DNA from: Rhodobacter sp. SY28-1
GTDB lineage: Bacteria > Pseudomonadota > Alphaproteobacteria > Rhodobacterales > Rhodobacteraceae
Reading direction: 5' to 3'
Assembly (NCBI RefSeq): GCF_005222785.1
Contig: NZ_STGH01000003.1
Location: 124,001-188,000 of the forward strand
Length of the DNA: 64,000 bases
Part shown: one piece after another, positions 42,206 to 60,751 of the stretch
How positions within the stretch are numbered: position 1 is the stretch's first letter
Layout: each line of letters starts with the position of its first letter
The notes under the pieces: generated by a model
The model's input: only the letters and a program-made list of their open reading frames with translations
Database searches by the model: none
Told to the model about the DNA's origin: nothing
Program-made: the position numbers and the translations under genes

Positions 42206-42991
42206 TTAGTAACTGCTGACTGTCCGAGCCTTTGTCTCCCTGACGTCTGCCAGGGATCTGGACAGCGCATTCGTGAAGAGACGAACGTCAGTCAGAAGCG
42301 ATGCGAAGTGGAAGCCCTGGTCCAGCATCGACCGGACCATGGAGGGCGAGCCGGTGTGGACCCCGGCGATGCGACTGGCCGCCCGGGTTCGGGCCGCGAT
42401 CTGGGTAATCGCCTCGATCACCTCTGCTGCGGTCGGTTCCAGGGTTGGCTCATGGCCGAGAGACAGGCCAAGGTCGGACGGGCCGACATAGACCCCGTCG
42501 ATGCCCTCTACAGAAAGGATCGCATCAAGGTTGGACAGGGCTTCCCGGGTTTCGATCATCGCAAACACGGCAACCTTACCGTTGGCATTTCGGGCGTAGG
42601 CAGCACCATGGACCATGTTTGCCCGCGTCGGCCCGAACGAGCGCCCGCCAAGCGGCGCATAGCGCGCGGCTTCGACCAGCCGACGGGCATCGTCGGCGGT
42701 GTTGATCATCGGGCAGATCAGGCCGGAGAAACCCGCGTCGAGACATTTCATGATGATGCCGGGTTCGTTCCACGGCACGCGGGCCAGGACAGGCGCAGGC
42801 AGGCCCTGAAGCACTTGGCACATCGTCACCGCCATCTGGTAGTCGATCAACCCGTGCTGAAGATCCACCGTGACCATGTCGAAGCCCGCCCGACCCACGA
42901 TCTCGGCCGTTATGGAGGAGGGGATGGCGCACCAGCCGTTCACGGCGGTGCCACCGTCGGCGAAGTGGGTCTTGAGGTCGGTGATCGGCAT
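42206..42991 (-). CDS. HpcH/HpaI-family aldolase
   Basis: A 261-residue class II metal-dependent aldolase/lyase. Segments: AIPSSITAEIVGRAGFDMVTVDLQHGLIDYQ, VLARVPWNEPGIIMKCLDAGFSGLICPMINTADDARRLVEAARYAPLGGRSFGP, the metal Glu in AMIETREAL and Asp in VYVGPSDLGLSLG. Family members cleave 2-keto-3-deoxy acids to pyruvate plus an aldehyde. It is the last gene of the minus-strand run that begins with the HpsN-like gene, so it probably performs the final cleavage of that pathway. Confidence 0.88.
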   Translation of the reverse strand: MPITDLKTHFADGGTAVNGWCAIPSSITAEIVGRAGFDMVTVDLQHGLIDYQMAVTMCQVLQGLPAPVLARVPWNEPGIIMKCLDAGFSGLICPMINTADDARRLVEAARYAPLGGRSFGPTRANMVHGAAYARNANGKVAVFAMIETREALSNLDAILSVEGIDGVYVGPSDLGLSLGHEPTLEPTAAEVIEAITQIAARTRAASRIAGVHTGSPSMVRSMLDQGFHFASLLTDVRLFTNALSRSLADVRETKARTVSSY

Positions 42992-43003
42992 GGGTGGCGT
43001 CCT

Positions 43004-43687
43004 TCAGGCAAGCCAGTCGCGCAGGGCGCGGGCGGTGGCTTCGGGTTGTTCCAGGGGGGGCAGATGTGCTGCGTTGGCGATGATGTGAAGCCGCGAGTGC
43101 GGGATGAGGTCGTGCATCAACTGGTGGCGGTCCAGCGGGCACAGCCTGTCTTCTGCCCCCATCAGGACAAGGGCGGGGCCCTTGAAGGCCGCCAGTGTCG
43201 CCTGCTGGTCGGGTCTGTCGCGCAGGGCGCGGGACTGGCGGGCAAAGACCTGCGGTCCAAGGGTCAACGCCATGTCCATGCAGAGGTCGAGGATCGCGGG
43301 CTTGTTGGGTCCGGGGGCAAGGTAGTTCGGCTTCATGTCGTTGCGCATGACGCCCTCCAGGTCCCCGGCCAGCGCCCGGTCGATCTGAGGGGCGCGGCGG
43401 GCCTGGGCGGCGGCAGTCTCGGCCCGGGGATTGGTGTCGAGAAGGGCGAGCCTTGTCACGCGGTCAGGGGCCTGGCGGAGGATCTCCATCGCGAGGATGC
43501 CGCCCATTGAGAGGCCGGCCAGGGCGAAGCGGGGCGGGGCATCCGCCAGGAACTGCGCGGCAAGGTCGGCCATGCTGTCGGCGCCAGTCGGGATGTGGTG
43601 GAGGACCGGGACGCCGAGGTCGGCATCGATCCCGCCCCACATCCGGGTGTCGCACATCATGCCGGGGATGAGGACGAGCGGGGTCAA
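43004..43687 (-). CDS. Alpha/beta-fold hydrolase
   Basis: About 227 residues. VLIPGMMCDTRMWGGI near the N-terminus is the oxyanion-hole region. The nucleophile elbow is ALAGLSMGGILAMEIL (G-L-S-M-G, about 75), the acid is in PALVLMGAEDRLCPLDRHQL, and the His in HIIANAAHLPPLEQPEAT. No ATG is available near the start. TTG at 43687 or 43696 would be used, and both lie at the double-hairpin element, which also supplies a GGAA ribosome-site-like word. Probably an esterase or lactonase in the pathway. Confidence 0.82.
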   Translation of the reverse strand: MTPLVLIPGMMCDTRMWGGIDADLGVPVLHHIPTGADSMADLAAQFLADAPPRFALAGLSMGGILAMEILRQAPDRVTRLALLDTNPRAETAAAQARRAPQIDRALAGDLEGVMRNDMKPNYLAPGPNKPAILDLCMDMALTLGPQVFARQSRALRDRPDQQATLAAFKGPALVLMGAEDRLCPLDRHQLMHDLIPHSRLHIIANAAHLPPLEQPEATARALRDWLA

Positions 43688-43693
43688 CGGGGC

Positions 43694-43737
43694 CAAATTC
43701 CTTCGAAGGAATTTGCAAAACTCTTCGAAGAGTTTTG
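43694..43737. repeat. AT-rich double hairpin element, copy 2
   Basis: Two perfect palindromes in tandem: CAAATTCCTT-cg-AAGGAATTTG (43694-43715) and CAAAACTCTT-cg-AAGAGTTTTG (43716-43737), flanked by GGC and GCC. Arms are 10 bp in both, as in copy 1 at 24988. It fills the space between the MetE-like gene and the hydrolase gene and overlaps the hydrolase's possible start region. Confidence 0.8.
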
Positions 43738-43741
43738 GCCC

Positions 43742-44863
43742 TTAGCCGACACGTCGCGCGCCTTCCTTGAGGGTGGCAAGCTTGGCCCAGGCGATTTCGG
43801 GGTCGACTGCGCCGAAACCTGCAAAGGTGCCAAAGCCGCAGTCCGACCCGGCGATGACGCGATCAGTGCCCAGGATGTTGGTGAACCGTTCAAGTCGCTG
43901 CGCGACGAGGTCAGGGTGTTCGACGAAGTTGGTCGTCGTATCCACCGCGCCGGGGATCAGGACCTTGTCGTCCGGGATCTCGGCCGCGCGGTCGCGGAAG
44001 ACGGTCCATTCATGGCCGTGGCGGGGGTTCGCGGTTTCAAACAGGATATAGCGGGCGGGGACCGACATAAGGAGCGGGAAGACCTTGGCCATGTCGATGT
44101 CGCAGACATGCGGGCCTTCGTAGTTGCCCCAGCAGATATGCAGCCGGATGCGGTCTTGCGGCAGCCCTGTAAGCGCAATGTGCAGGGCCTCGACATGGGT
44201 TGCGGCGGTCTTCAGGAACTCGTCGTCGCTGAGGTGCGTGAAAAGCATGTGGCGCGACAGGGCGAGGTCGGGGCAGTCAAGTTGCAGGTCCAGCCCCGCG
44301 TCAAGGATCGTGCGGTATTCGTCGCGCATCGCGTCGGCGAGGGCGTAAAGGTAGTCCTCGCGGGTGCCGTAGAAGGCGTTCTGCAGGAACAGGCTGATGA
44401 CCCCGGGCGAGGCTGCGTTCATGAAGCCGCGGTCTACCCCATGTGCGGCCATCGCGGCCTTGAGGTTGGCGATGTCCTTCTGCAATTCACCCTGGCCCTT
44501 GGTCGCGACAGGCCCCACGCATTGCGGGCGGGCGTATTTCGGGGTACCGCCCTCCTTGGCGAGGCGGTCGAGGAAGGTCGGAAACAGCTTCAGGTCGGCG
44601 GGCGCATTCCGGGGGCTGTCGCCGTCAAAGCCGGTGTAGCGGTCCTTGACGTAGGTCGCGTAGCTGATCTTCGACGCCTCGCCGTCCGAGACGATGTCGA
44701 TCCCGGCCTCCTTCTGCCGCCGGACGTTTTCCATCACCGCGTCGGCCATGCAGGCGTAGAAAGCGGCGGGGTCGTAAGCGTCGCCCCGTTCGCGGGCGAA
44801 GAGGAAGTCCACCACCTTTTGCGGGCGGGGGAGCGATCCGACATGGGTGGCGAGAAGGGTCAT
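43742..44863 (-). CDS. Cobalamin-independent methionine synthase-like (MetE C-terminal) protein
   Basis: A 373-residue TIM-barrel protein of the MetE core family: THVGSLPRPQKVVDFLF, EAGIDIVSDGEASKISYATYVKDRYTGF, ILDAGLDLQLDCPDLALSRHM, the zinc ligands in IRLHICWGNYEGPHVCDID (His, Cys) and FVEHPDLVAQRLERFTNILGTDRVIAGSDCGFGTFAGF with the second Cys. Such single-domain proteins are not real methionine synthases. They demethylate or transfer thiol/alkyl groups in catabolic clusters. Its place between hydrolase and cupin in the operon points to a catabolic step. Confidence 0.85.
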   Translation of the reverse strand: MTLLATHVGSLPRPQKVVDFLFARERGDAYDPAAFYACMADAVMENVRRQKEAGIDIVSDGEASKISYATYVKDRYTGFDGDSPRNAPADLKLFPTFLDRLAKEGGTPKYARPQCVGPVATKGQGELQKDIANLKAAMAAHGVDRGFMNAASPGVISLFLQNAFYGTREDYLYALADAMRDEYRTILDAGLDLQLDCPDLALSRHMLFTHLSDDEFLKTAATHVEALHIALTGLPQDRIRLHICWGNYEGPHVCDIDMAKVFPLLMSVPARYILFETANPRHGHEWTVFRDRAAEIPDDKVLIPGAVDTTTNFVEHPDLVAQRLERFTNILGTDRVIAGSDCGFGTFAGFGAVDPEIAWAKLATLKEGARRVG

Positions 44864-44882
44864 GGCTGGTCCTTTCACGTCA

Positions 44883-44901
44883 GGTGGGCAGATTGCCCAC
44901 C
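44883..44901. repeat. Palindrome GGTGGGCA-gat-TGCCCACC
   Basis: 8-bp perfect stem between the cupin stop and the MetE-like start, followed by CTACG as in the palindrome at 4504. Probably an intergenic repeat or internal attenuator. Confidence 0.6.
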
Positions 44902-44915
44902 CTACGTTGCATTGG

Positions 44916-45884
44916 TCAAAGCAGGCGGCCGGTCAGGCCCGCGGGATCGTCGGTCGCGACGACGCGATACAGGCTGGCTTCCCCGGTCATCGATGGTGCG
45001 AGAGAGTGTTCCAGGCCCGGCGGTATCGCTGCCGTATCGCCGGGATTCAGCACGGTGGAGCCTTCCGACCACGACAGCCGCCAGTGGCCGCGCATCGGCA
45101 TCAGGACCTCATGCTTGGTCAAGGTATAGGGCGTGTCGGGAATCGAATTGCGCGACAGGAAGTCCACGTCAAAGCCGGGGCGGTCGCGCAGCTTGCCGTT
45201 CGCGCCGATCACCTTGGCGGGCTGCCGGTCGGAGAGCGCCATCAGGTCCCAGTAGCGGGCGACGTGGTTCGGGATCACGTCGGCGGTCGTCGGTTCCGGG
45301 AAGGCCTTCAGCTCTTCCTCGGTCAGCAGCGGCATCGGCGGCACGCCCTCGGGCAAGGACTGACCCCTCTTGGTGTCGTAAAGCTTGCCGTTCCTGCCCA
45401 GCACCAGCCCGTAATCCTTGGCATCGGTGATCACCTGCGGCGCCCAGATCACCCCGCCCCCGGCATCGTCCCCTCCCAGGATCGCCATGATCATCCCGTA
45501 GTCGGTGCCGACGTTCTCGAACGCCCGAAAGATGCCGGTCGGGATGTTGAAGATGTCGCCTTCCTCGGCGATGAACTCGCCCGCCGTGCCCCAGCGGCCC
45601 CAGAAGAACCGCCAGCGGCCCTTCAGGACGAAGAACACCTCGGCCGTCCGGTGGGAGTGCAGCGAGTTCCGGCACCCCGGAGGCTGGCCGGCCGCGCCGA
45701 TGTTGAAGCCGGGTGTCTCGCGAATGTGGACGTGCTGGTCGGGAGATTCCGACACCCCGCCGCCGATGATGGTGAAGTTCTCCTTCCGGTCGCTGCCCGG
45801 GGTATGGGCGTCGATGAAGGCGGTCTTGCAGGGCCGGAGGTCGCCATAGCGGACAATGCGGGCTTCCATCTCTTGCGGGGTCAT
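44916..45884 (-). CDS. Bicupin, gentisate 1,2-dioxygenase-like
   Basis: A 322-residue protein with two cupin domains. Domain 1 (about 55-140): PPGCRNSLHSHRTAEVFFVLKGRWRFFWG with the metal His-His-Glu motif and DIFNIPTGIFRAFENVGTDYG. Domain 2 (about 235-320): TKHEVLMPMRGHWRLSWSEGSTVLNPGDTAAIPPGLEHSLAP. Ring-cleaving dioxygenases look like this, but many of these bicupins are not proven dioxygenases. The start overlaps nothing and lies six bases from the upstream SnoaL gene's stop, so they form one operon. Confidence 0.82.
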   Translation of the reverse strand: MTPQEMEARIVRYGDLRPCKTAFIDAHTPGSDRKENFTIIGGGVSESPDQHVHIRETPGFNIGAAGQPPGCRNSLHSHRTAEVFFVLKGRWRFFWGRWGTAGEFIAEEGDIFNIPTGIFRAFENVGTDYGMIMAILGGDDAGGGVIWAPQVITDAKDYGLVLGRNGKLYDTKRGQSLPEGVPPMPLLTEEELKAFPEPTTADVIPNHVARYWDLMALSDRQPAKVIGANGKLRDRPGFDVDFLSRNSIPDTPYTLTKHEVLMPMRGHWRLSWSEGSTVLNPGDTAAIPPGLEHSLAPSMTGEASLYRVVATDDPAGLTGRLL

Positions 45885-45889
45885 TTCTT

Positions 45890-46867
45890 TTATCCTTGGT
45901 AGGAGTGGTCGGGGTGGCTGAGCAGGATCTGCTTCCAGATGGAAACCTCGTCCCACAGGCTGAATTCGCGGCGCAGGCCCCAGGGCCCGAACTCGGCATG
46001 GGTGAAACCCATGATGTGGACCTTTGCGCCGGTCGGGGCGCCGAACAGGCCAAAGCCGGTGTGATGCCCGTCCAGCGACCAGCGCACCGCCGCGCGGTCG
46101 GGCTGGCCGGGATCGGCGCGGCCGATCTGGTGGTGGATGGTGAAAGTGGCGTCGGGGAAGCAGGTGCGAAGCTGCATCCACTGCGCTTCGGCAAAGGGGA
46201 TGCCCCAGCCGGTGACGCCGCCCGCGTGCGAGATGTGGACTGCCCGGTCATAGCTTCGGCCGATGACGGCCACGTCCTTGGCCATGATGCCGGTCAGGAT
46301 ATCGGCCAGCCTCTGCCCCAACGGGTGGTCGTTGCCAAGCCCAGTATAAGGGCCGGGCAGGTCGATCTCGGGCGTATAGGGGCGGCGGGCCTTGTCGGTG
46401 CCGCCCTCGCGCGCAATCGAAGCCCGCGCCCAGGCTTCCGGGCTGTGGCCCAGCTGCCGGACCATGGACCCCATGTCATAGCAGAGCCATTCGTCGGTGA
46501 TGACGTCGTCCTGCACGTAGCAGTCCGCGATACAGCGGGCGGCCACCACCTTGCCGGTCGGTGGGCCAAAGACCCCGTGACCCGTATGGGTGCCGATAAT
46601 CATCGAGCGGTGGGAGGAGAGATAGCCGGTCGCCTCATCCCCCGACCAGATCACGTCATCGCCGTAGATCTGCCGGTCCGGGAAGGCGGCCAGCGAGGCC
46701 AGTGTGTCGTTGATGACATCGACGTTGCCGGTCATCACGCCCAGCGTGCTGCGGGCGATCATATCCTTGGCATAAGCCTGGTGCAGCGAGGCGATCTGGC
46801 GACCTTCCCAGATTTCCCAAGTGACGCCCTGGATGTAGTCGGGCAGTGTTGCAAAGCGCGAAGTCAT
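45890..46867 (-). CDS. Double NTF2/SnoaL-like protein, paralog 1
   Basis: A 325-residue protein made of two similar SnoaL-like halves. Half 1 (about 60-140): VIWSGDEATGYLSSHRSMIIGTHTGHGVFGPPTGKVVAARCIADCYVQDDVITDEWLCYDMGSMVRQLG. Half 2 (about 195-315): FTIHHQIGRADP, AAVRWSLDGHHTGFGLFGAPTGAKVHIMGFTHAEFG. The GHHTGFG/PTG and H-E/D residues suggest an isomerase, cyclase or hydratase-like pocket. The closest relative in the window is the protein at 57703, and no enzymatic activity is established for this double form. Confidence 0.8.
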   Translation of the reverse strand: MTSRFATLPDYIQGVTWEIWEGRQIASLHQAYAKDMIARSTLGVMTGNVDVINDTLASLAAFPDRQIYGDDVIWSGDEATGYLSSHRSMIIGTHTGHGVFGPPTGKVVAARCIADCYVQDDVITDEWLCYDMGSMVRQLGHSPEAWARASIAREGGTDKARRPYTPEIDLPGPYTGLGNDHPLGQRLADILTGIMAKDVAVIGRSYDRAVHISHAGGVTGWGIPFAEAQWMQLRTCFPDATFTIHHQIGRADPGQPDRAAVRWSLDGHHTGFGLFGAPTGAKVHIMGFTHAEFGPWGLRREFSLWDEVSIWKQILLSHPDHSYQG

Positions 46868-46877
46868 TGGGAGTCCC

Positions 46878-47642
46878 TCAGTCTGCGGTCCAGCCGCCGT
46901 CGACGATCAGCGAGGTCCCGGTCACCAGCGCGGCGGCGTCCGAGGCGAGGAAGGCGACCGCGCCCATGATGTCCGTCACCTCGCCCACCCGGTCCAGCTT
47001 GATCTTTGACGCGATCCAGGCGGCGCGTTCGGGGTTGGCGAAGGTGGCGGCGGTCAGCGCAGTGCGGATGAAGGTCGGCGCGATCGTGTTCACACGGATG
47101 CCGTGCGGCCCCCATTCGATGGCCATGGACTTGGTCATCCCCTCGACCGCGTGCTTGGTGGCCGAATAGACCGCCCGGTCAATCCCGCCGACATGCGCCA
47201 TCTGGCTGGTGATGTTGATAAGCGAGCCGGGCTTGCCCTCGGCCAACAGACGTCTTGCGACCGAGCGGGTCAGGAAATAGGCCGCGCGGACGTTCAGGTT
47301 GGTGACGGCGTCGTAATCCTCGGCCGTCGTGTTGATGGCCGGGGAATGTCGCGCGAGGCCCGCCGAGTTCACCAGCACGTCAAACGCCGGACGGGCGGAA
47401 ATGGCGGCCTCGGTCGCGGCAAGATCGGTGATGTCGAGCGGCAGGATATCGGCCTGCCAGCCTTCGGCCTGCATCTCCTCCGCCAGCGACGTCAGCTCCG
47501 GCTCGCGGCGGGCGCAAAGGGTTACTTGCGCGCCCTGTTCTGCCAACGCAACCGCACAGGCCGCCCCGATCCCGGACGACGCCCCGGCGACCAGCGCGCG
47601 GCGGCCGTCAAGCCGGAAGGAAGGGGTGCGGGGCAGTGTCAT
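46878..47642 (-). CDS. Short-chain dehydrogenase/reductase
   Basis: A 254-residue classical SDR: cofactor motif [34 protein letters not shown] (T-G-x3-G-x-G variant), [10 protein letters not shown], catalytic Ser in [45 protein letters not shown] (Tyr-x3-Lys) and the C-terminal [16 protein letters not shown]. Probably NAD(P)-dependent oxidation of an alcohol intermediate. Its ATG overlaps the stop of the HpsN-like gene by four bases, so the two are coupled. Confidence 0.92.
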
Positions 47643-48949
47643 TCGGCAGCGGTTCCGTATTCCACGTTGCGGCCACCATAGCGACGGACGCGGATGTTGC
47701 ACTGCTCGGCGTGGCCGACGAAGCCCTCCAGCATGCAGAGACGGCTGCCGTATTCGCCGATCAGGGCGGCGGCAGCGTCGGTGGTCACGCGCTGATAGCT
47801 GTGGGTTTTCAGGAACTTGCCAACCCAAAGGCCGCCGGTGTAGCGCCCGGCCTTCTTTGTCGGCAGCGTGTGGTTGGTGCCGATTACCTTGTCGCCGTTT
47901 GCCACGTTTGTGCGCGGCCCAAGGAACAGCGCGCCATAAGAGTGCATGTTTGCCAGATACCAATCGTCGCGGTCGGTCATGACCTGGACGTGTTCGCTGG
48001 CGATGTCGTTGGCGACCTCCAGCATTTCCTCATGGCTGTCACAGAGGATCACTTCGCCATAGTCGCGCCAGCTGATCGAGGCGGTCGCGGCGGTTGGGAG
48101 GATTTTCAGCAAGCGGTCGATTTCGGCCATAGTGGCTTCGGCCAGCTTGCGGCTGTTCGTCACCAGCACGGCGGGCGAGTTATAGCCGTGTTCGGCTTGG
48201 CCTAGGAGGTCGGTTGCGCACAACTCGGCATCGACGGTGTCGTCGGCGATAACCATGGTTTCGGTCGGACCGGCGAAAAGGTCGATGCCCACGCGGCCGT
48301 AAAGCTGGCGCTTGGCTTCCGCGACATAGGCGTTGCCGGGGCCGACCAGCATGTCCACCGGCTTGATGGTTTCGGTGCCGATGGCCATGGCGCCGACGGC
48401 CTGCATGCCGCCGAGGACGTAGATCTCGTGCGCGCCGCCCATGTGCATGGCGGCGACGATGGCGGGGTGGGGGGCGCCGTTGACTGGGGGAGCCGAGGCG
48501 ATGATGCGGGGCACACCGGCGACAGAGGCGGTCAGGACCGACATGTGGGCGGAGGCGACCATCGGGAACTTGCCGCCGGGGACGTAGCAGCCGACGGACT
48601 GGACCGGTATGTTGCGGTGACCAAGGATCACGCCGGGGAGGGTCTCAACCTCGACATCGGTCATCGAGGCGCGCTGCGCCTCGGCAAAACGGCGGATCTG
48701 GGTCTGGGCAAAGCGGATGTCCTCGATGTCGCGGGGGGCGACTTTCTGGATCGCGGCCTCGATCTCGGAGGGGGTGAGGCGGAAGGCGGGCGGGTCGTAC
48801 TTGTCGAACTTGACCGACAACGCGCGGACAGCGGCATCGCCCCGGGCCGAGATATCGGCAAGAACGGATTCGACGGTGGCCCGGACCTGAGCATCGTCCG
48901 CAGCCCGTTCCGCCTCGGGCTTGCCGCGTTTGAGCCAGGTGATTGACAT
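47639..48949 (-). CDS. hpsN: HisD-superfamily dehydrogenase, HpsN-like (sulfopropanediol dehydrogenase)
   Basis: A 436-residue zinc- and NAD-dependent four-electron alcohol dehydrogenase of the histidinol dehydrogenase superfamily. [70 protein letters not shown], Zn ligand [12 protein letters not shown], catalytic [37 protein letters not shown] and EGFVGHAEQ are present. [24 protein letters not shown] differs from true HisD and resembles HpsN, which oxidises 2,3-dihydroxypropane-1-sulfonate. No histidine-pathway or sulfolyase genes are near, so the exact substrate is unproven. It heads the seven-gene minus-strand operon, directly behind an operator. Confidence 0.85.
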
Positions 48950-48962: not shown

Positions 48963-48978
48963 TTGAATACGTTTGCAA
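48963..48978. promoter_or_regulatory. LacI-type operator 1 (before HpsN-like gene)
   Basis: TTGAATACGTTTGCAA, a central-CG palindrome pairing at six of eight positions, 13 bases before the HpsN-like start codon. Matches the consensus TTGCATACGTATGCAA shared with the sites at 49086, 57598 and 58944. Confidence 0.65.
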
Positions 48979-49085: not shown

Positions 49086-49101
49086 TTGCAGACGTATGCA
49101 A
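49086..49101. promoter_or_regulatory. LacI-type operator 2 (before second HisD-like gene)
   Basis: TTGCAGACGTATGCAA, seven of eight palindrome positions, central CG. It lies 57 bases before the plus-strand HisD-like gene in the divergent spacer shared with operator 1, so both directions could be controlled together. Confidence 0.7.
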
Positions 49102-51949: not shown

Positions 51950-52095
51950 GATTTGAGGTAGGCTTCGACCTTTGCGACTTCGCCCCGCAGATGCTGCGCC
52001 CCGGCCCAGGCGGCGGCGAAGGCCTTGTCATCGAGGGTGAGGCCAAGCGCAGCGAGACGGGCGCGGAACTCGTCCTTGGTGAAATCGGTTTTCAT
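51946..52095 (-). CDS. Small AtzG-like amidase partner subunit
   Basis: A 49-residue ORF starting with the ATG at 52095: MKTDFTKDEFRARLAALGLT, then LDDKAFAAAWAGAQHLRGEV and AKVEAYLKS. Its two short helical segments around LALLGL-type and AWAGAQHLR positions resemble the DUF4089/AtzG family, whose members form a complex with AtzE-like amidases. The start overlaps the LacI-gene stop (ATGA) and its stop overlaps the amidase ATG (ATGA), so all three are translationally coupled. It is short, but its place and coding bias favour a real gene. Confidence 0.75.
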   Translation of the reverse strand: MKTDFTKDEFRARLAALGLTLDDKAFAAAWAGAQHLRGEVAKVEAYLKS

Positions 52096-53166: not shown

Positions 53167-54207
53167 TCATGCCAGGCGGCTGCCGGTCATTGCGTCGAAG
53201 AGGTGGATCTTGTCGGTCGGGATGGCGACATGAAGCAGCGCGCCGATGTCGATGCGAAAGTCCTTGTGGGCGCGGACAGACACCAGTGCCTCGCCGATGC
53301 GGACGGAGACGAGGGTGGCGTCGCCGAGGAGTTCCATCGAGTAAACGGGGGCGGTGAGTTGTGCGGGGGTGTCGCTGACGCGGACGTCTTCGGCGCGGAA
53401 GCCGAGGGTGACGGGGCCTTGGCCTTGGGCGGGGACGGCGATGCCCTCGGCGCGGAAAGTGCCATCCTGGATGTTACCGGCGATCAGGTTCATCGCGGGG
53501 GAGCCGATGAAGCTGGCGACAAAGGTGTTGGCGGGGCGGTCGTAGATCTCGGTCGGGGTGCCAAGCTGCTGGACGAGGCCGTGGTTCATCACGACGACGC
53601 GGTCGGCGAGGGTCATCGCCTCGATCTGGTCGTGGGTGACGTAGATCGTGGTGCGGCGGAGGGTGTGGTGCAGGTGCTTGATCTGGGCGCGAGTCGAGAC
53701 GCGGAGCTTGGCGTCGAGGTTCGACAGGGGTTCGTCCATCAGGAAGGCGTTCGGCTCGCGGACGATGGCGCGGGCGAGGGCGACGCGCTGGCGCTGGCCA
53801 CCCGACAGGGCGGCGGGGCGGCGGTCGAGGAAGGGGCCGAGCTCCACCATCTGGGCGGCTTTCATCACCCGGTCGTGGTGTTCGTTGGCCGGGATGCGGC
53901 GGACCTTCAGGGGGAAGCGGATATTTTCGTAGACGGTGAGATTCGGATAAAGGCCGTAGGACTGGAAGACCATCGAGATGTCGCGGTCCTTGGGTTCAAG
54001 GTCGTTGACTTTACGGTTGCCGATCCAGATTTCGCCCTCAGTCACGTCTTCGAGGCCAGCGATCATCCGCATGGTGGTGGTCTTGCCGCAGCCGGAGGGG
54101 CCGAGGAGGACGAGGAATTCGGCATCGGCGATGTCGAGGGTGAAGTTGTCGACGGCGACGTAAGAGCCCCAGCGTTTGGAGACGTTGTTCAGGCGGATCT
54201 GGGCCAT
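53167..54207 (-). CDS. Carbohydrate-type ABC transporter ATP-binding protein (UgpC/MsmK-like)
   Basis: A 346-residue ATPase with regulatory C-terminal domain. Walker A is LLGPSGCGKTTTMRM (about 36), signature LSGGQRQRVALARAIV, Walker B FLMDEPLSNLDAKLR, H-loop YVTHDQIEAMTLADRVVVM. The C-terminal OB-fold TOBE domain (about 235-346) is present. It follows the two permease genes with gaps under 10 bases. Confidence 0.93.
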   Translation of the reverse strand: MAQIRLNNVSKRWGSYVAVDNFTLDIADAEFLVLLGPSGCGKTTTMRMIAGLEDVTEGEIWIGNRKVNDLEPKDRDISMVFQSYGLYPNLTVYENIRFPLKVRRIPANEHHDRVMKAAQMVELGPFLDRRPAALSGGQRQRVALARAIVREPNAFLMDEPLSNLDAKLRVSTRAQIKHLHHTLRRTTIYVTHDQIEAMTLADRVVVMNHGLVQQLGTPTEIYDRPANTFVASFIGSPAMNLIAGNIQDGTFRAEGIAVPAQGQGPVTLGFRAEDVRVSDTPAQLTAPVYSMELLGDATLVSVRIGEALVSVRAHKDFRIDIGALLHVAIPTDKIHLFDAMTGSRLA

Positions 54208-54211: not shown

Positions 54212-55090
54212 TTATCCTTTGACGGCGCCGGCGGTCAGACCGGAGACGATCTGGCGCTGGAAGAAGAGGACGAGGATGAAAAGCGGCACGGTGGCCGAGA
54301 CGACGGCGGCGACGGCGAACATCACGTTGCCCTCGTTCTGGATGCTGCCCAGGAAGCTGGCGATCTTTGGGACCATGGTCTGGTTTTCCTGCGCCAGCAG
54401 CATCGAGGTCACGGCGAAGTCGTTGTAGCCGAGGAGGAAGGAGAAGAGGCCAGTGGTGATGACGCCGGGCCACATGACGGGGATGATGACCATGCGGAAG
54501 GCCTGGAAGCGGGTGCAGCCGTCGACCATCGCGCTTTCGTCGAGGTCCTTGGGGATCGACAGGAAGAAGGAGTGCAGCATCCAGAGGGTGAAGGGCTGGT
54601 TGATGGCGACGAGGACGATGATCGTGGTCGGCAGGACGCCCCAGATGTTCAGCTGAAAGAACGGCAGCATGTAGCCCGAGACCAGCGTGATATGCGGCAT
54701 GGCGCGGAAGATCAGGGCGGCGATCAGGATCCAGAAGGCGTAGCGATAGCCGGAGCGGGCCAGCGCGTAGCCGCCCAAGGTGCCGATGGTCAGGGAGATG
54801 ATTGTCACTGACAGCGTCACGATCAGGGTGTTGATCGCGGCCTTCCAGAATTCGTTCTTCACCCATGCGCCTTCGTAGCCGGCGAGGGTGAATGCCGACC
54901 CGGTCTGGGCTTGGGTGCGCGTACCCTCGATCGCCATCCACCAGGACTGGCGCGAGAAGAAGTCGGCCTCGACCTTGAAGCTGCCCCAGACGGTCCAGGC
55001 GAAGGGGAAGGCGGCGGCTATCACCCAGATCACCAGGAAGGCGAGGATCAGGGCGTTCAGGGCTGCGGGGCGGCGGGTGGCAACGGACAT
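54212..55090 (-). CDS. Carbohydrate-type ABC transporter permease (MalG-like)
   Basis: A 292-residue membrane protein with about six helices. It opens ALNALILAFLVIWVIAAAFPFAWTVWGSFKVEADFF. The EAA-type loop reads DLDESAMVDGCTRFQAFRMVIIPVMWPGVITTGLFSFLLGYNDFAVTSML. It partners the permease immediately upstream (one-base gap). Confidence 0.92.
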   Translation of the reverse strand: MSVATRRPAALNALILAFLVIWVIAAAFPFAWTVWGSFKVEADFFSRQSWWMAIEGTRTQAQTGSAFTLAGYEGAWVKNEFWKAAINTLIVTLSVTIISLTIGTLGGYALARSGYRYAFWILIAALIFRAMPHITLVSGYMLPFFQLNIWGVLPTTIIVLVAINQPFTLWMLHSFFLSIPKDLDESAMVDGCTRFQAFRMVIIPVMWPGVITTGLFSFLLGYNDFAVTSMLLAQENQTMVPKIASFLGSIQNEGNVMFAVAAVVSATVPLFILVLFFQRQIVSGLTAGAVKG

Positions 55091-55091
55091 C

Positions 55092-56123
55092 TTACACCGC
55101 CTTCTGATTGAACTCGCGCCAGGTGCGGCGGAGGACGGGGGCGAGGAGGATCAGGACGCCGACGATGGTGATCACCGAGGTGGCGGCGGCGGAGCCGAAG
55201 AGCTGGGAGTCCTGGCCGACGAGGTCGTTGAAGACGAGCCAGCTGAGAGAGGTCGCGTTCGCCTCGGCCGAGAAGCCGACGATGGGTTCGAAGACGCGGA
55301 AGTTGTCCATCAGCTGCACGAGCGCCACGAAGGTGGCGAGGGGCGCGAGGTGGGGGATGATGACGTGGCGGATGACTTCCCACCGGCTTGCGCCGTCGAT
55401 CTTGGCGCTTTCCACGGTGTCCTGCGGCACGGTCTGGAGGCCTGCGTAGAAGACGACGAAAGAGAAGGGGCCGTTGGTCCAGACGCCGTAGACCAGAAGG
55501 ACGATCCAGGTCAGCACCGGTGAGGCGCGAAGCGACAGGCCCGGGTCTCCGGTCAGGCTTTGTAGGCTCGCGCCGAGGATGCCGGAGGGGTTGAACATCC
55601 AGGCGAGGATCAGCGACCCGACGAGGGGCGTGATGATCATCGGCAGGATTGAAACGAAGATGGTGGGGCCTTTCAGAAGGCCAGGCAGCGTGTTCACGGC
55701 CAGGGCAATGGCAAAGCCCAAACCCATCGCAAGCGGGGTCACAAGGAAGCAGTAGACCAGCGTGAAGGACAAAGCCTTGTAGAAGGGCAGGTTGAAGATG
55801 CGGCTGACGATGTCACCGAAGCCCTGATTGTCGGCGAAGATCGCCCCGATCTCGTCCACGGCAAGGTGGTTGCGGTTCAGGTAGTTGGAAAAGCCTGCGA
55901 ACTGGCCAAGGGGCTGTTCCGCCTCTAGCTTTGCCATCGCCTCGGTATCGACACGGGTCTGTTCGGAGCAGCCGAAGGGATCGCAGTTTTCCACCGTGAT
56001 CAGCACGGCCTCATGCTGGACGAACAGCGACTGCACCACGACCGAGACGATGGGCAGGGTGATGAACAGCACCATCGCCAGGATTGAGGGGAAGATGAAG
56101 AAGAAGAAGGTGCGATGCGGCAT
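55092..56123 (-). CDS. Carbohydrate-type ABC transporter permease (MalF-like)
   Basis: A 343-residue permease with N-terminal FFFFIFPSILAMVLFITLPIVSVVVQSLFV, further helices, and the EAA loop VPQDTVESAKIDGASRWEVIRHVIIPHLAPLATFVALVQLMDNFRVFEPIVGFS. An unusual periplasmic insertion (about 35-105) with EAEQPLGQFAGFSNYLNRNHLAV follows the first helix. It is the first permease after the binding-protein gene. Confidence 0.92.
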   Translation of the reverse strand: MPHRTFFFFIFPSILAMVLFITLPIVSVVVQSLFVQHEAVLITVENCDPFGCSEQTRVDTEAMAKLEAEQPLGQFAGFSNYLNRNHLAVDEIGAIFADNQGFGDIVSRIFNLPFYKALSFTLVYCFLVTPLAMGLGFAIALAVNTLPGLLKGPTIFVSILPMIITPLVGSLILAWMFNPSGILGASLQSLTGDPGLSLRASPVLTWIVLLVYGVWTNGPFSFVVFYAGLQTVPQDTVESAKIDGASRWEVIRHVIIPHLAPLATFVALVQLMDNFRVFEPIVGFSAEANATSLSWLVFNDLVGQDSQLFGSAAATSVITIVGVLILLAPVLRRTWREFNQKAV

Positions 56124-56205
56124 CGGGAGGTTCCAGTAAAGATGGGCCGGTGCGCGGGGCCAAGCGGGGCCCCGGTGGACGCGTCGACAGGGTGCGGGGA
56201 AGGAA

Positions 56206-56238: not shown

Positions 56239-56256
56239 GGGGCGCGAAAGGCGCCG

Positions 56257-57504
56257 TTACTTCAGGAAGCCGCCTTCTTTGGCAGCGGCGTCATAGGCGG
56301 CTTTCACATCGGCAAGGGCCTGGTCGGCGTCTTCCTTGCCGGCGATGAAGTCGGCGAGTTCGGCGGACAGCGCGGTGTGGAGGAGACCCATGTAGGGCTG
56401 CATCGGATAGGCGCGCGCGCCACCCTTCGCATTGCCGATCACGCCGACAGCGGTCGGGCCGGGTTCAAACCCTGCAACCAGCCAGGTGGCGGCAGTCGGG
56501 TTCGCTGCGACGGTTTCGGGGCTGATGCCCTTGACCATCGCCTGGAACGAGGCGGCAGCATCTTCGTCCGAGATGTTCTTGGCGATGGTGAAGCCGTCCC
56601 ACCACAGCGCAGCCGCCGGGACAGTGCCGCCGCCGATGGTGGGGGCTGCGGCAAAGGCGGTGTTGGCAGCGACTTCGGCATTGGCGGTGGCCGGGTCGAT
56701 GGCCGCACCGGCCAACGAGCCCCACTGGTTCATGATCGCGACCGAGCCTGCGTCCCAGAGCTTGTTCAACTCGTTCGCGTCGTAGGTCAGGTAGTCGGGG
56801 TTCATGAAGCCGGTCATGGCGCGCATGGTTTCCAGAACCTTGCGGCCGTTGTCGTTGTCGATGGCCAGTTCCGCCGAACCGGGGGCGAAGAATTCCCCGC
56901 CGGTGCCGAGATACATGTTCACGAATTCCGCGGCGAGGTCCCAGCCGGGCTTGTCCGAGGCGGCCAGCGGGTATTCCATCAGTCCCGCGTCCTTGATCAC
57001 CTGGGCGGCGGCGAGGACTTCCTCATAGCTGGTCGGCACGGCGACGCCGGCCTTTTCCAGGATGTCCTTGCGGTAGAACATGTGCTGGCCGTTGCCCATG
57101 AAGGCGATGGCCATGACCTTGCCGTCGATCTTGATCAGCTGGTTCGGCTGCAGCGACTGACCGTACTTGGCCACCAGGTCGTCCAGCGGGCGGATCAGGT
57201 CGTCGTTCAGCAAGGGCACGATGGAGTTGTTGGCGACCACGGCGACGGTGTATTCCGCCGGGTTCACGGTCAGGGCGGGCCCTTGGATGTTCTTGTGCTC
57301 CGCCGTGGCGTTGGCGGTGACGGTCACGTCGGCAGTGGCGCAGGAGAGGGCCACGTCGTTGACGATGCGCAGCGCCTCGAAGTCGTTGGACAGGATGCGG
57401 ACCGAGCCTTTGCCTTCGATCCCGCAATCGGCGAAGGCGGTGGAGGCGGCGATCAGCGCGACCAGGCTGACTGCGCCCGCCGCGAAGGTTCTGGTGAGTT
57501 TCAT
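56257..57504 (-). CDS. Carbohydrate-type ABC transporter substrate-binding protein
   Basis: A 415-residue periplasmic protein with signal peptide (KLTRTFAAGAVSLVALIAASTAFA, cut after Ala). It is a family 1 extracellular solute-binding protein: VRILSNDFEALRIVNDVALSC, VTVTANATAEHKNIQGPALTVN, YGQSLQPNQLIKIDGKVMAIAFMGNGQHMFYRKDILEKAGVAVPTSYEEVLAAAQVI and LNKLWDAGSVAIMNQWGSLAGAAI. The first Cys residues (ADCGIEGKG, SCATAD) could form a disulfide. It lies downstream of an operator at 57598. Confidence 0.9.
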   Translation of the reverse strand: MKLTRTFAAGAVSLVALIAASTAFADCGIEGKGSVRILSNDFEALRIVNDVALSCATADVTVTANATAEHKNIQGPALTVNPAEYTVAVVANNSIVPLLNDDLIRPLDDLVAKYGQSLQPNQLIKIDGKVMAIAFMGNGQHMFYRKDILEKAGVAVPTSYEEVLAAAQVIKDAGLMEYPLAASDKPGWDLAAEFVNMYLGTGGEFFAPGSAELAIDNDNGRKVLETMRAMTGFMNPDYLTYDANELNKLWDAGSVAIMNQWGSLAGAAIDPATANAEVAANTAFAAAPTIGGGTVPAAALWWDGFTIAKNISDEDAAASFQAMVKGISPETVAANPTAATWLVAGFEPGPTAVGVIGNAKGGARAYPMQPYMGLLHTALSAELADFIAGKEDADQALADVKAAYDAAAKEGGFLK

Positions 57505-57597
57505 TCGTGTTCCCCTCTGCTGGCGATGCTCGCCGGTTGACCTGTCGGATGGCGCGGGACTCGATTGGTCCCGGCCTTCGGGGCAGGTAAGCATCTT

Positions 57598-57613
57598 TTG
57601 CATACGATTGCAA
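57598..57613. promoter_or_regulatory. LacI-type operator 3 (before binding-protein gene)
   Basis: TTGCATACGATTGCAA, six of eight palindrome positions, central CG, 93 bases before the binding-protein start. Its half-site GCATACG matches the other operators. Confidence 0.65.
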
Positions 57614-57702
57614 ACACTATGTGCGGCGCTGGCCCGCAGGGCCGGAAAAGCGAACGGCCCGCCGGGTGGGGCGGGCCGCTTGAGTCATTGGGCGGAGGTT
57701 GG

Positions 57703-58863
57703 TCAGGTTTGCGCGGTGAGGCCCGCGGCCTTGACGTCGGCCATCTGCGCCAGCTTGACCTGGACCAGGGCCGAGGCTTCGTCATAGACGCGCCATTCGT
57801 CGACGATCTTGCCGTTCTTGTAGTGGAAGTGGGTGATGCCCATGATCTGCACCCGCTTGCCGGTGGGGCTGCCCAGGTGGTTCAGGATGCCATAGCCGAT
57901 GTGGTGGCCTTCCATGATCCAGCGGACGGCGACCTTTTCGCCGCCTTCCTCGCACGGGGTGGAGCAGATGTGGTGCACGGTGAAGGCCGCGTCGGGGATA
58001 CTGCCGATCAGGCCAAGGGTCTGATGGATGATCGCGGCGTGGCCGTAAAGTTCGGCCATCAGGGGGCCGTGATACTGGGCGGTGGGCGCGTAGACCTTGG
58101 CGATTGTGCCCAGCATCTTGCGGTTGAAGACGTCATGCAGCCAGCGCAGCGTGTGGCGTTCGAGGTCTGAAGTGGCGAGGCTGAGGTCCGGCTCAGCCTC
58201 GGGCGGGTACTGGCCTACTTGCGCGCGGTTTTCGCCGATATCCAGCGAAACCATGCCCTTGTCGAAGGCGGATTTGGCGATGCGCTCGGCATAGCCCTGC
58301 ACATCGATCCCCAGTTGCTGCAGGATCGCGGTGGTGTCGGCGACGACCCATTCGCGGTAGATCTTGTTTTCATAGATCATGCAGTCGGCAACGGTGCGGC
58401 TGGTGAACATGCGCCCGGTGGCCGGGCCGAGGTGGCCGTTCTGGCTGTGCCGCCCTGTTCCGGTGACCAGGTGCGAGGTGTAGAAGCCGTCGTCCTCGTT
58501 CCCTTTCCAGATCACATGGGTCGCCATGCCGCGGCGTTCGGGGAAGGAAACAAGTCGCTGGATCGTGTCGCGGACGACTTCCTCGCGCGTGTAAAGCGTG
58601 CCGGTGGTGCCGTAGAGCACGCAGTTGTGGGTGTAGTGGCTGTAGATCAGGCCGATGTCGCGTTCGTCCCAGATCAGGTGGGTGCAGCGGACGATGTAGT
58701 CGACGATGTCGGTGTAGATCGCGTCGAAGCCGCGCATCGGTTGGGTGCGCTTGGCGTTCTGCGGGGCGAGGTCGGTGTAGTCGTGGCGTTCGACCTGCAT
58801 GACGCGACCGGTCGTGGCCGGCGTGAGATCGCCGCCTTTGGGGCTGGTGGATTTTTCCGACAT
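57703..58863 (-). CDS. Double NTF2/SnoaL-like protein, paralog 2
   Basis: A 386-residue paralog of the 45890 gene, with an N-terminal extension. Half 1 (about 130-215): HVIWKGNEDDGFYTSHLVTGTGRHSQNGHLGPATGRMFTSRTVADCMIYENKIYREWVVADTTAILQQLGID. Half 2 (about 275-375): FTVHHICSTPCEEGGEKVAVRWIMEGHHIGYGILNHLGSPTGKRVQIMGITHFHYKNGKIVDEWRVYDE. Shared positions with paralog 1 include the PTG and H-H/G motifs. The start MSEKST at 58863 is set by GGAG eight bases upstream. It is the first gene of the operon that continues to the amidase. Confidence 0.8.
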   Translation of the reverse strand: MSEKSTSPKGGDLTPATTGRVMQVERHDYTDLAPQNAKRTQPMRGFDAIYTDIVDYIVRCTHLIWDERDIGLIYSHYTHNCVLYGTTGTLYTREEVVRDTIQRLVSFPERRGMATHVIWKGNEDDGFYTSHLVTGTGRHSQNGHLGPATGRMFTSRTVADCMIYENKIYREWVVADTTAILQQLGIDVQGYAERIAKSAFDKGMVSLDIGENRAQVGQYPPEAEPDLSLATSDLERHTLRWLHDVFNRKMLGTIAKVYAPTAQYHGPLMAELYGHAAIIHQTLGLIGSIPDAAFTVHHICSTPCEEGGEKVAVRWIMEGHHIGYGILNHLGSPTGKRVQIMGITHFHYKNGKIVDEWRVYDEASALVQVKLAQMADVKAAGLTAQT

Positions 58864-59416
58864 TCTCATTTCTCCAACTGTGCCGCGTTCCGACTCATGG
58901 AAAAGCAAAGCATCCTTCCGGGTCGTGCAACAAGTGATGCGTTTAGCATACGTATGCAAGCACTATTCGTGGCTTGGGCAGAATTCTTCCCCGGGGGCGT
59001 GCCTGCATGAGTGGAGGATCGGCGGCGGATCGGTACGTGAGCGCAAGTCTGCAGCCCTTGGACCCGGGTTTGGGATCGGCTCCGCACACGTCGTGGCCGC
59101 ACGTCCACGCACTTCTTCCGATGCGCGGTGCGGACTGTCCGCCATGGGCCAAGAGCGCAATAGGGAATACCCCGAACGACTGGTGGAAATGCTGTACCAA
59201 GTCATGAAGGTGGCCAACGTCATCTCGATCACGGCGGTCCAAGGTGTCAGCGCACAACCCTCCAATAGCCATGTGCGGTCTGGCATTTTCATCATTGGAA
59301 CGCTCAGTTGGGCAGGGAAGCCCGCCTGGAACGTTGCGCGCTGGCAGCTTGTCCGGGCCAGGGAGCCGTGCCAACTATCGACTCTTGGCCCGGTAAGACG
59401 CGTGCGAGAACCCCTG
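58864..59416. other. 553-bp intergenic region with operator 4, no gene
   Basis: Separates divergent promoters of the SnoaL-like operon and the MFS carrier. Operator 4 is at 58944. The rest contains open frames without recognisable domains or ribosome sites. Confidence 0.6.
58944..58959. promoter_or_regulatory. LacI-type operator 4 (before SnoaL paralog 2 / MFS)
   Basis: TAGCATACGTATGCAA with perfect GCATACGTATGC core and central CG. It lies 80 bases before the SnoaL gene and about 460 before the MFS gene, so it likely controls the former. Confidence 0.75.
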
Positions 59417-60751
59417 ATGTCAGTCTTTCATCGCATCCTTGCGAACAATTTGTTGGCGAACATCACCAACTTTACCGCGTGGTTCGCCATAACATTCTGG
59501 GTCTTCCTGGAGACCGGATCAGTCTTCGCCACCGGCATGATTGCAGGGATCTTCCTGACCTTCACCGGTCTTCTGGGCATCTGGCTGGGTGCGCTGGTCG
59601 ATCATCACGGAAAGATTGCCGTGATGGCAGGCTCATCGCTGGTCTCGCTGATCTTCTTTTCCTTGTCGCTTGTCTTGATGCAGATGGTGCCGGATCAGGC
59701 CTTCATCAATCCCTACGGCGTTTGGCTCTGGGCGCTGGTGCTGATGGTCATGGGCGGCGTCATCGCTGGCAACATCCGCGGCATTGCCCTGCCGACTGTC
59801 GTGACACTGCTGATCCCCGAAGATGAGCGCGACAAGGCCAACGGTCTGGTGGGCATGGTCTCTGGCGTTGGCTTCCTTGTCACATCGGCGGTTTCGGGCT
59901 TTCTGGTCGCCTGGGGCGGGATGAAGCTGACCCTGATCGTCTGCGTTGTGGCGACACTCTTGGCGCTGATCGACATCCGCACGATCCGTTTCACCGAACC
60001 CGCGCCGGTCGAAAATGGCGAAACCGCAGGGAAGGACACCCTTCCGACCGGCCGCAAGGTCGACCTGCGCGGAACAATAAGGGTTGTGGCGGGGGTTCCG
60101 GGTCTTATTGCGCTGATCCTTTTTTCCATGTTCAACAACTTCCTCGGTGGCATCTTCATGGCCTTGCTCGATGCCTACGGCCTGAGCCTGGTCTCGGTCG
60201 AAGTCTGGGGATTGACCTTCGCCATCCTGTCATCTGCCTTCATCCTGGGCGGCATGGCCGTGACAAAGTTCGGGCTGGGCAGGAACCCGGTACGCACACT
60301 GCTGCTTGTGAATGTGGTGGTCTGGGCCGGGGCCAGTGTCTTTGCCATCCAGCCGTCTTTCGCACTCTTGGTTGCGGGATGTTTCTTATGGATGGCTCTT
60401 GGCCCCGTGGCCGAGGCCGCCGAGCAGACAACCCTGCAGAAGGTCGTGCCGGTAGAGCGGCAAGGTCGTGTGTTCGGCTTCGCCCAGTCGATGGAACAGG
60501 CTGCCTCGCCCCTGACTGCCTTTCTGATCGGCCCCCTTACCCAGTTTGTCGTGATCCCCTTCATGACCGATGGCGCGGGCGCGCAGACTATCGGCGGCTG
60601 GTTCGGCACCGGGCCGGACCGCGGCATCGCGCTGGTCTTTACCGTGGCTGGGCTTGTTGGCGTTCTGGTGGCAGTGCTTGCGCTGCGATCGCGCCCGTAT
60701 CGCTTGTTGTCCGCGCGCTACTTGCATGCGGACACACCCTCGGACGTCTAG
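59417..60751 (+). CDS. MFS transporter
   Basis: A 444-residue membrane protein with about twelve predicted segments. It begins FHRILANNLLANITNFTAWFAITFWVFLETGSVFATGMIAGIFLTFTGLLGIWLGALVDHHGK, the LGxLVDHHGR-like motif A of the family between helices 2 and 3. It resembles the DHA3/enterobactin-exporter-like MFS group. It could export a toxic or pathway compound or import a related solute. It is divergent from the SnoaL-like operon, possibly under the same LacI-type control. No clear substrate. Confidence 0.88.
   Translation: MSVFHRILANNLLANITNFTAWFAITFWVFLETGSVFATGMIAGIFLTFTGLLGIWLGALVDHHGKIAVMAGSSLVSLIFFSLSLVLMQMVPDQAFINPYGVWLWALVLMVMGGVIAGNIRGIALPTVVTLLIPEDERDKANGLVGMVSGVGFLVTSAVSGFLVAWGGMKLTLIVCVVATLLALIDIRTIRFTEPAPVENGETAGKDTLPTGRKVDLRGTIRVVAGVPGLIALILFSMFNNFLGGIFMALLDAYGLSLVSVEVWGLTFAILSSAFILGGMAVTKFGLGRNPVRTLLLVNVVVWAGASVFAIQPSFALLVAGCFLWMALGPVAEAAEQTTLQKVVPVERQGRVFGFAQSMEQAASPLTAFLIGPLTQFVVIPFMTDGAGAQTIGGWFGTGPDRGIALVFTVAGLVGVLVAVLALRSRPYRLLSARYLHADTPSDV

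What the first reader, a model, noticed from the sequence alone, without database searches (positions are those of the whole stretch)
42206..60751. Undescribed catabolic cluster with paired HisD-like and double SnoaL-like paralogs
Seen in sequence: two transcription units with matched sets (two HisD-superfamily enzymes, two double SnoaL-like proteins), plus SDR, bicupin, MetE-like, hydrolase, HpaI aldolase, AtzE/AtzG-like amidase, LacI regulator and a complete carbohydrate-type ABC importer. Known: HpsN oxidises 2,3-dihydroxypropane-1-sulfonate, HpaI cleaves 2-keto-3-deoxy acids, AtzE-type amidases hydrolyse amides. Inference: the set could take in an amide- or polyol-like molecule, hydrolyse it, oxidise primary alcohols to carboxylates, and finish with aldol cleavage. 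I know no described pathway with this combination.
Basis: partly seen in the sequence, partly recalled or inferred. Interest (0 to 1): 0.78.

Follow-up and report, generated by a model that had tools for sequence, protein, structure and literature searches.

The report
Conserved uncharacterised LacI-controlled catabolic regulon
About 16 neighbouring genes look like one switch-controlled pathway for taking up and breaking down an unidentified sugar-like molecule; much the same enzyme set recurs in distantly related bacteria, and no description of it turned up in the papers searched.

Summary
Window 42.2-58.96 kb encodes two unlike HisD-superfamily dehydrogenases (46% identical), two double-SnoaL proteins (29%), SDR, bicupin, MetE-C-like protein, alpha/beta hydrolase, HpaI-type aldolase, amidase, LacI and a CUT1-type importer. 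Four near-identical palindromes (TTGCATACGTATGCAA; 0.03 expected) precede the two HisDs, the binding protein and SnoaL-A; one weaker site lies elsewhere in the genome. Most of the set recurs, reordered, in Rhodobacterales, Devosia, Sphingopyxis, Sinorhizobium and Enterobacterales, and a core in Deinococcus and Priestia. In 295 Rhodobacteraceae genomes bicupin and HisD-A co-occur (116 of 120; 101 of 116 within 15 kb). The terminal aldolase is HpaI- or RraA-type, never both (20 versus 22 of 47 loci; 5 neither), so retro-aldol release of pyruvate is the best-supported step. Both HisDs keep the catalytic residues but lack the HpsN sulfonate-sensing His and lie outside HisD, so DHPS and histidinol are unlikely substrates. 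Amidase and AtzG are not core. The substrate is unknown: probably a polyol or cyclitol with CH2OH next to C-OH or C-N. Boldest unexcluded reading: mycosporine/gadusol sunscreens degraded through the gallate-pathway intermediate CHA.

The parts
42206..42991 (-). HpaI-type class II aldolase (PF03328)
   Evidence: 106 bits; an RraA-like aldolase is found instead in 22 of 47 fuller loci
43004..43696 (-). alpha/beta hydrolase, PcaD/BioH-like
   Evidence: GxSxG, Asp and His positions conserved
43742..44863 (-). MetE C-terminal-domain-like protein with HxC...E...C
   Evidence: 44.6 bits, cut-off 21; 11 sequences; match in 114 of 295 family genomes
44916..45884 (-). bicupin, fold like quercetinase and other bicupins
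45890..46867 (-). double SnoaL protein B
   Evidence: 29% identical to SnoaL-A
46878..47642 (-). SDR dehydrogenase, KduD-like
47639..48949 (-). HisD-superfamily dehydrogenase A
48963..48978 (.). LacI-type operator-like palindrome before HisD-A (2 mismatches)
49086..49101 (.). LacI-type operator-like palindrome before HisD-B (1 mismatch)
49159..50454 (+). HisD-superfamily dehydrogenase B
50594..51949 (-). amidase-signature amidase (below AtzE cut-offs)
51946..52095 (-). small ORF overlapping the amidase, AtzG-like by size and place only
52092..53108 (-). LacI-family regulator
53167..54207 (-). MalK-type ABC ATPase
54212..55090 (-). ABC permease 2
55092..56123 (-). ABC permease 1
56257..57504 (-). 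carbohydrate-type solute-binding protein
57598..57613 (.). LacI-type operator-like palindrome before the binding protein (2 mismatches)
57703..58863 (-). double SnoaL protein A
58944..58959 (.). LacI-type operator-like palindrome before SnoaL-A (1 mismatch)

Best explanation
A single LacI-controlled catabolic regulon. A CUT1-type ABC importer (an MFS carrier in enterobacteria) brings in a neutral polyol-, sugar- or cyclitol-like compound; LacI binds the TTGCATACGTATGCAA sites until an inducer from that compound appears (inferred). Double-SnoaL proteins act early on the imported compound, as lyase, isomerase or hydrolase (inferred from their linkage to the importer); amidase, glycosidase, sulfatase or peptidase genes beside some clusters may trim variants of it (inferred). 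HisD-A and HisD-B are zinc/NAD four-electron dehydrogenases that turn CH2OH groups next to C-OH or C-N into carboxylates (inferred from conserved active sites), and the SDR oxidises a secondary alcohol (inferred). Bicupin plus alpha/beta hydrolase then open or cleave the skeleton, giving a 4-hydroxy-2-oxo acid that HpaI, or in other lineages an RraA-type aldolase, splits into pyruvate and an aldehyde or oxo acid. Shown here: gene set, linkage, conserved active-site residues, operator-like sites, aldolase exchange. Inferred: substrate class, order and chemistry of each step.
For: Four operator-like palindromes at the four start points, 0.03 expected, 0 of 100 shuffles with four; one other place in 4.28 Mb, with 3 mismatches. 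226 such sites in 97 related loci against 3 in one base-shuffled copy of each, 202 near labelled gene starts. Linkage across Rhodobacterales, Devosia, Sphingopyxis, Enterobacterales and on plasmids of Sinorhizobium, Roseibium, Paracoccus, Pantoea, and as a core in Deinococcus and Priestia. Co-occurrence in 295 family genomes. HpaI 20, RraA 22, both 0, neither 5 of 47. HisD-A and HisD-B each one group (99/96, 100/98), apart from HisD and HpsN, with catalytic motifs kept. Importer plus SnoaLs occur without local HisD or cupin in Vibrio pelagius, Phaeobacter piscinae, G059 and G014, while G059 and G014 carry HisD-A, cupin and MetE-like genes elsewhere.
Confidence: 0.6

Rival explanations
1. Sugar or alditol pathway (a specific form of the best explanation): the two HisDs oxidise the two primary alcohols of a polyol or glycoside to an aldarate-like diacid, the SnoaLs or cupin dehydrate or isomerise it, and HpaI (GarL-like) or RraA cleaves the 2-keto-3-deoxy diacid to pyruvate and tartronate semialdehyde.
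For: CUT1-type importer and LacI fit carbohydrates; SDR closest to KduD (208 bits); the aldolase scores 152-155 bits with 2-dehydro-3-deoxyglucarate aldolases, 169 with HpaI; a reductase gene that I judge 3-hydroxyisobutyrate-dehydrogenase-like by eye lies nearby in G077 and G175 and in L095 and L103.
Against: No aldarate or sugar-acid dehydratase of known type was noticed in the clusters read; needs SnoaL to act as dehydratase; bicupin and hydrolase have no clear task; all scores below equivalog cut-offs.
Confidence: 0.3
2. Mycosporine/gadusol (C7 cyclohexenone) catabolism (another specific form): SnoaLs release the amino substituents, HisD oxidises C5-CH2OH to COOH, the cupin cleaves the 2-methoxy-1,3-dione ring, the hydrolase removes the methyl ester (or the MetE-like protein the methyl), giving 4-carboxy-4-hydroxy-2-oxoadipate, which RraA or HpaI splits into pyruvate and oxaloacetate.
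For: Chemistry drawn on paper from recalled structures ends at the classical substrate of RraA-type CHA aldolases (recalled); RraA-like gene in 22 of 47 loci; sources of carriers of bicupin or SnoaL relatives include a red alga culture, coral, seawater, leaves and soil; [quoted passage not shown] one Vibrio pelagius plasmid has importer plus four SnoaL-type genes only.
Against: No direct test; SDR and second HisD have no fixed task; MetE-like gene in only 13 of 47; habitats fit many compounds.
Confidence: 0.15
3. Sulfonate (DHPS-like) pathway with HpsN-type dehydrogenases.
For: HpsN structures are the best PDB matches of both HisDs; in the tree HpsN joins the HisD-A side (98/96), so HisD-A is nearer to HpsN than to HisD-B; Lys353 equivalent kept; an NMT1-type ABC importer, a luciferase-type monooxygenase and an FMN reductase lie just upstream.
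Against: The HpsN motif G-R-Y-A/S-H reads GKFPM or GRFPL here; HpsN forms its own group (100/99); none of seven upstream proteins has a match of 45% identity or more in the related loci.
Confidence: 0.04
4. Chance neighbourhood of unrelated genes.
For: Gene order is shuffled between lineages; some genes come and go.
Against: Shared operator-like sites and 101 of 116 linkage.
Confidence: 0.01

Closest known systems
HpsN, (R)-DHPS 3-dehydrogenase (PDB 8v35, 8wwe)
   Same: HisD superfamily, zinc and catalytic residues, Lys353 equivalent; four-electron CH2OH oxidation next to C-OH; nearest known relative of HisD-A in the tree
   Different: Sulfonate-sensing His126 is Met or Leu here; separate group; no sulfolactate genes noticed in the clusters
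Histidinol dehydrogenase HisD
   Same: Fold, Zn site, Glu-His catalytic pair
   Different: Separate group (100/100); GDK or SDK instead of GDY; the genome has its own hisD on contig C2
LacI-controlled CUT1 carbohydrate regulons
   Same: Importer, LacI and palindromic operator-like sites as in sugar regulons
   Different: No sugar kinase, sugar isomerase or glycosidase among the 16 genes
Protocatechuate/gallate pathways ending in CHA aldolase; homoprotocatechuate pathway ending in HpaI (recalled)
   Same: Terminal class II pyruvate aldolase, with ring opening and alpha/beta hydrolase logic
   Different: No aromatic ring hydroxylase among the 16 genes; HisD, SnoaL and sugar-type importer instead
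AtzE/AtzG 1-carboxybiuret hydrolase (recalled)
   Same: Amidase signature family and a small preceding ORF
   Different: Below AtzE cut-offs; small ORF without HMM support; not core

Membership tests
HpsN (DHPS 3-dehydrogenase) | Motif G-R-Y-A/S-H ending in sulfonate-binding His126 | tested here: not met
   window GKFPM and GRFPL; GK[FY]P[ML] in 12 of 12 HisD-A rows, GR[FY]P[LI] in 11 of 12 HisD-B rows, one not read by my search pattern; rule from PMC11382572; a Paracoccus HisD beside a taurine-type ABC does show GRYAH
HpsN (DHPS 3-dehydrogenase) | Catalytic Glu318-His319, Asp352 and Lys353 | tested here: met
   aligned EH and GDK/SDK
Histidinol dehydrogenase (HisD) | Groups with biosynthetic HisD | tested here: not met
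   tree of 31 rows, two HisD rows split off at 100/100; separate own hisD, 571 bits
AtzE amidohydrolase (NF006631, TIGR02715) | Curated score cut-off | tested here: not met
   286.8 against 461; 275.4 against 425.75
AtzG | HMM-recognisable AtzG partner | tested here: inconclusive
   no relevant hit for 49 aa; place and size only
HpaI equivalog (TIGR02311) | Curated score cut-off | tested here: not met
   168.7 against 368.8; superfamily PF03328 met
Cobalamin-independent methionine synthase MetE | Equivalog cut-off | tested here: not met
   373 aa, best 87.1 against 406 bits; PF01717 met, 44.6 against 21
Quercetinase/gentisate-type bicupin dioxygenase | Fold | tested here: met
Quercetinase/gentisate-type bicupin dioxygenase | Complete set of metal-binding His (motif recalled) | tested here: not met
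   H76, H78, E82 invariant but R120 in place of the last His in 28 of 28
Quercetinase/gentisate-type bicupin dioxygenase | Dioxygenase activity | not testable with these tools
   needs enzyme assay
LacI-controlled carbohydrate import regulon | LacI gene, CUT1-type importer and shared palindromic sites | tested here: met
   LacI binding itself not testable here

The most novel reading that the evidence does not exclude
A bacterial pathway, common in Rhodobacteraceae and spread across Pseudomonadota, Deinococcota and Bacillota, that mineralises mycosporine-type sunscreens and gadusols, routing them into the gallate-pathway intermediate 4-carboxy-4-hydroxy-2-oxoadipate and so to pyruvate and oxaloacetate.
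Probability: 0.15. Interest if true: 0.85.

Novelty: new variant of a known kind. Interest (0 to 1): 0.62.

Why it matters
Matches to the bicupin sit in 120, to HisD-A in 143 and to the MetE-like protein in 114 of 295 sampled Rhodobacteraceae genomes, nearly one genome per genus, so a large share of an ecologically important family carries a linked pathway for which I found no named substrate. The operator-like sites, the two HisD clades and the aldolase exchange make it directly testable, and the two HisD clades would extend four-electron alcohol oxidation beyond histidinol and DHPS. A natural product taken up by aquatic, leaf and soil bacteria alike would be worth knowing.

Tried and rejected
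DHPS and histidinol as substrates: made unlikely by motif and tree. Amide-driven pathway: amidase not core. Pantothenate, ascorbate, kojic acid, isosaccharinate, apiose, lignin arylglycerol and iminosugars were weighed from recall only; none seemed to explain HisD, SnoaL, cupin and aldolase together, and none was tested. PDB sequence search of the bicupin gave nothing usable (best E 0.14); of SnoaL-A only single-domain SnoaL-type proteins; of the MetE-like protein two weak methionine-synthase hits. Foldseek with SnoaL-A: the 50 rows shown are single-domain SnoaL/NTF2-type chains. Literature: for the gene set, searches (and 26 for SnoaL with lignin lyases); for mycosporine degradation, 33, 34 and 83, of which 33 showed 20 of 1,244 and 83 showed 15 of 216 papers. 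Nothing listed describes the set or a gene set for bacterial mycosporine degradation; only titles and abstract starts were seen, and subscription papers and preprints are not held. Off-cluster operator hits fetched from G018, G247 and G283 (L155, L162, L163) showed no core enzyme gene; those in G050 and G165 led to further parts of the pathway. The window MFS has no tblastn hit at E 1e-6 in the related loci, and none of seven upstream proteins a hit of 45% identity or more.

Limits: gene starts in relatives are first start codons, so distances are rough; its shuffle keeps base content only. One search started from 104 loci or genomes (the window not among them); 57 without SDR, cupin and HisD together at my cut-offs were dropped, many of them truncated. 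The SDR cut-off (50%) leaves out Deinococcus and Priestia, and the five Rhodospirillales loci have no HisD or SDR at the cut-offs. The 5 of 47 with neither aldolase are L071, L083, L092 (which end near the cupin), G165 and G202 (not explained). Close species (Buttiauxella, Rahnella, Devosia) make up much of the 47. In Sinorhizobium medicae ml29 (L165) HisD-A matches in two frames and is unannotated, and HisD-B was not seen.
Full report
What is there. The window lies at G000:C3:124001-188000 of a 4.28 Mb genome. On the minus strand from 48949 down to 42206 run HisD-A, SDR, SnoaL-B, bicupin, MetE-C-like protein, alpha/beta hydrolase and HpaI-type aldolase. HisD-B (49159-50454) is divergent and alone on the plus strand. 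On the minus strand from 58863 down to 50594 lie SnoaL-A, solute-binding protein, two permeases, ATPase, LacI, a 49-aa ORF and an amidase. HisD-A and HisD-B are 46% identical, SnoaL-A and SnoaL-B 29%. The MFS gene at the right end has no tblastn hit at E 1e-6 in the related loci and does not belong to the unit; seven proteins encoded upstream have no match of 45% identity or more there either.

One regulon. The palindrome TTGCATACGTATGCAA, with at most three mismatches, occurs four times in the window against 0.03 expected, in front of HisD-A, HisD-B, the binding protein and SnoaL-A. In the whole genome there is one further place, with three mismatches, and none with the reversed control pattern. 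In 97 related loci there are 226 such sites against 3 in one base-shuffled copy of each, 202 of them near labelled gene starts (this shuffle does not keep dinucleotides, and some loci are the same contig fetched twice). In Buttiauxella and Rahnella the sites lie between the MFS carrier and LacI; in Pantoea, Deinococcus and Priestia two sites each lie between genes of the set. Because LacI-family operators share a general form (recalled), placement is the stronger argument. Binding itself is inferred.

Conserved as a unit. One genome-contig scan with SnoaL-A gave 77 loci, and a family search gave hits in 56 of 295 genomes, 15 of them at 64% identity or more. tblastn with the window proteins shows most of the set in Rhodobacterales, Devosia, Sphingopyxis, Buttiauxella, Rahnella, Serratia, Cedecea and others, in shuffled order; five Rhodospirillales loci keep cupin and SnoaL, in most with a second SnoaL and in three a MetE-like gene, but no HisD or SDR in the stretch. 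Annotated plasmids carry it in Sinorhizobium medicae (HisD-A in two frames and unannotated, no HisD-B seen), Roseibium algicola, Paracoccus alcaliphilus (no HisD-B or SnoaL-A at the cut-offs) and Pantoea dispersa. Deinococcus sp. QL22 has LacI, SDR, two HisDs, HpaI-type aldolase, hydrolase, a short cupin, four SnoaLs and importer genes; Priestia filamentosa from leaves has LacI, SDR, a short cupin, hydrolase, aldolase, one SnoaL, one HisD, two MFS carriers and an amidase; these two are more distant (about 25-60% identity). In the same 295 Rhodobacteraceae genomes bicupin occurs in 120 (E 1e-60), HisD-A in 143 (E 1e-150) and the MetE-like protein in 114 (E 1e-100). Bicupin and HisD-A share 116 genomes, 101 of them with both within 15 kb; bicupin and MetE-like share 106, 85 of them near; HisD-A and MetE-like share 110, 87 near; all three 103; Fisher p values are 5e-45 or less, without correction for kinship. 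Of the 15 SnoaL-A genomes one (G042) lacks bicupin and HisD-A hits and four lack the MetE-like hit; in G153 the MetE-like hit is only 51% identical and on another contig.

What is core. Of 104 loci or genomes, 47 hold SDR, bicupin and a HisD together. In these 47, HisD-A is in 45, HisD-B in 40, LacI in 46, SnoaL-A in 43, hydrolase in 42, amidase in 23 and MetE-like in 13. HpaI-type aldolase alone is in 20, RraA-type aldolase alone in 22, both in none, neither in 5, three of which end near the cupin. The RraA family was confirmed by Pfam on one member. HpaI and RraA are unrelated folds (recalled) that both split 4-hydroxy-2-oxo acids, so this exclusive exchange is good evidence for the last step. 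Accessory genes differ: a GH1 protein (L134), an M19 dipeptidase and a deacetylase (L135), an alpha-amylase-family protein (L123), a sulfatase (L101), and a CN-hydrolase in Deinococcus. Importer plus SnoaLs occur without local HisD or cupin in Vibrio pelagius (beside sarcosine oxidase genes), Phaeobacter piscinae, G059 and G014; the last two carry HisD-A, bicupin and MetE-like genes elsewhere. This places the SnoaLs near the start of the pathway (inference).

Mechanism. Best supported: import, early action of SnoaLs and accessory hydrolases, oxidation of CH2OH groups by the HisDs and of a secondary alcohol by the SDR, opening or cleavage by bicupin and hydrolase, and retro-aldol release of pyruvate. 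The substrate is not identified. Two specific readings compete: an alditol or glycoside oxidised at both ends and cleaved as a keto-deoxy aldarate, and a mycosporine/gadusol ring whose oxidised, ring-opened form is 4-carboxy-4-hydroxy-2-oxoadipate, the classical substrate of RraA-type aldolases (recalled chemistry). [quoted passage not shown] passages read). Neither reading was tested.

Novelty. Searches for the set, and 33, 34 and 83 for mycosporine degradation, listed no paper describing this set or such a gene set; two of these listings were short extracts of long result lists, and only titles and abstract starts were seen. All enzyme families are known; the combination, the regulon and the two HisD clades are not described in what I saw. 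It is therefore rated a new variant of a known kind, a catabolic regulon.

Noticed in passing
window 34439-41900: A divergent polysaccharide deacetylase, an NMT1-type ABC importer (binding protein, permease, ATPase), a luciferase-type monooxygenase and an FMN reductase lie just upstream; no match of 45% identity or more in the related loci.
   Followed up: partly
window 60995-63382: TRAP transporter DctP and DctM genes follow the MFS gene; a TRAP system also sits inside the Roseibium algicola cluster (L166:23976-26775).
   Followed up: no
L170:1-15160 (Vibrio pelagius plasmid): Importer and four SnoaL-type proteins stand beside sarcosine oxidase subunit genes, without HisD or cupin in the stretch.
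   Followed up: no
L167:24434-30954 (Paracoccus alcaliphilus plasmid): A second HisD with the HpsN motif GRYAH, next to a taurine-type ABC importer and D-cysteine desulfhydrase, shares the plasmid with this cluster.
   Followed up: partly
L165:21313-29068 (Sinorhizobium medicae plasmid): Allantoicase, gcl and hyi lie close to the cluster.
   Followed up: no
L165:6293-7578: HisD-A of Sinorhizobium medicae ml29 matches in two different frames and has no annotated gene; described only.
   Followed up: partly
G000:C1:638417-638432 (L008): The only other operator-like site in the genome (3 mismatches); its neighbours were not read.
   Followed up: no
L122, L160/L125, L168: Some clusters hold four or more SnoaL-type proteins of several subfamilies, as if many related substrates were processed.
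   Followed up: partly
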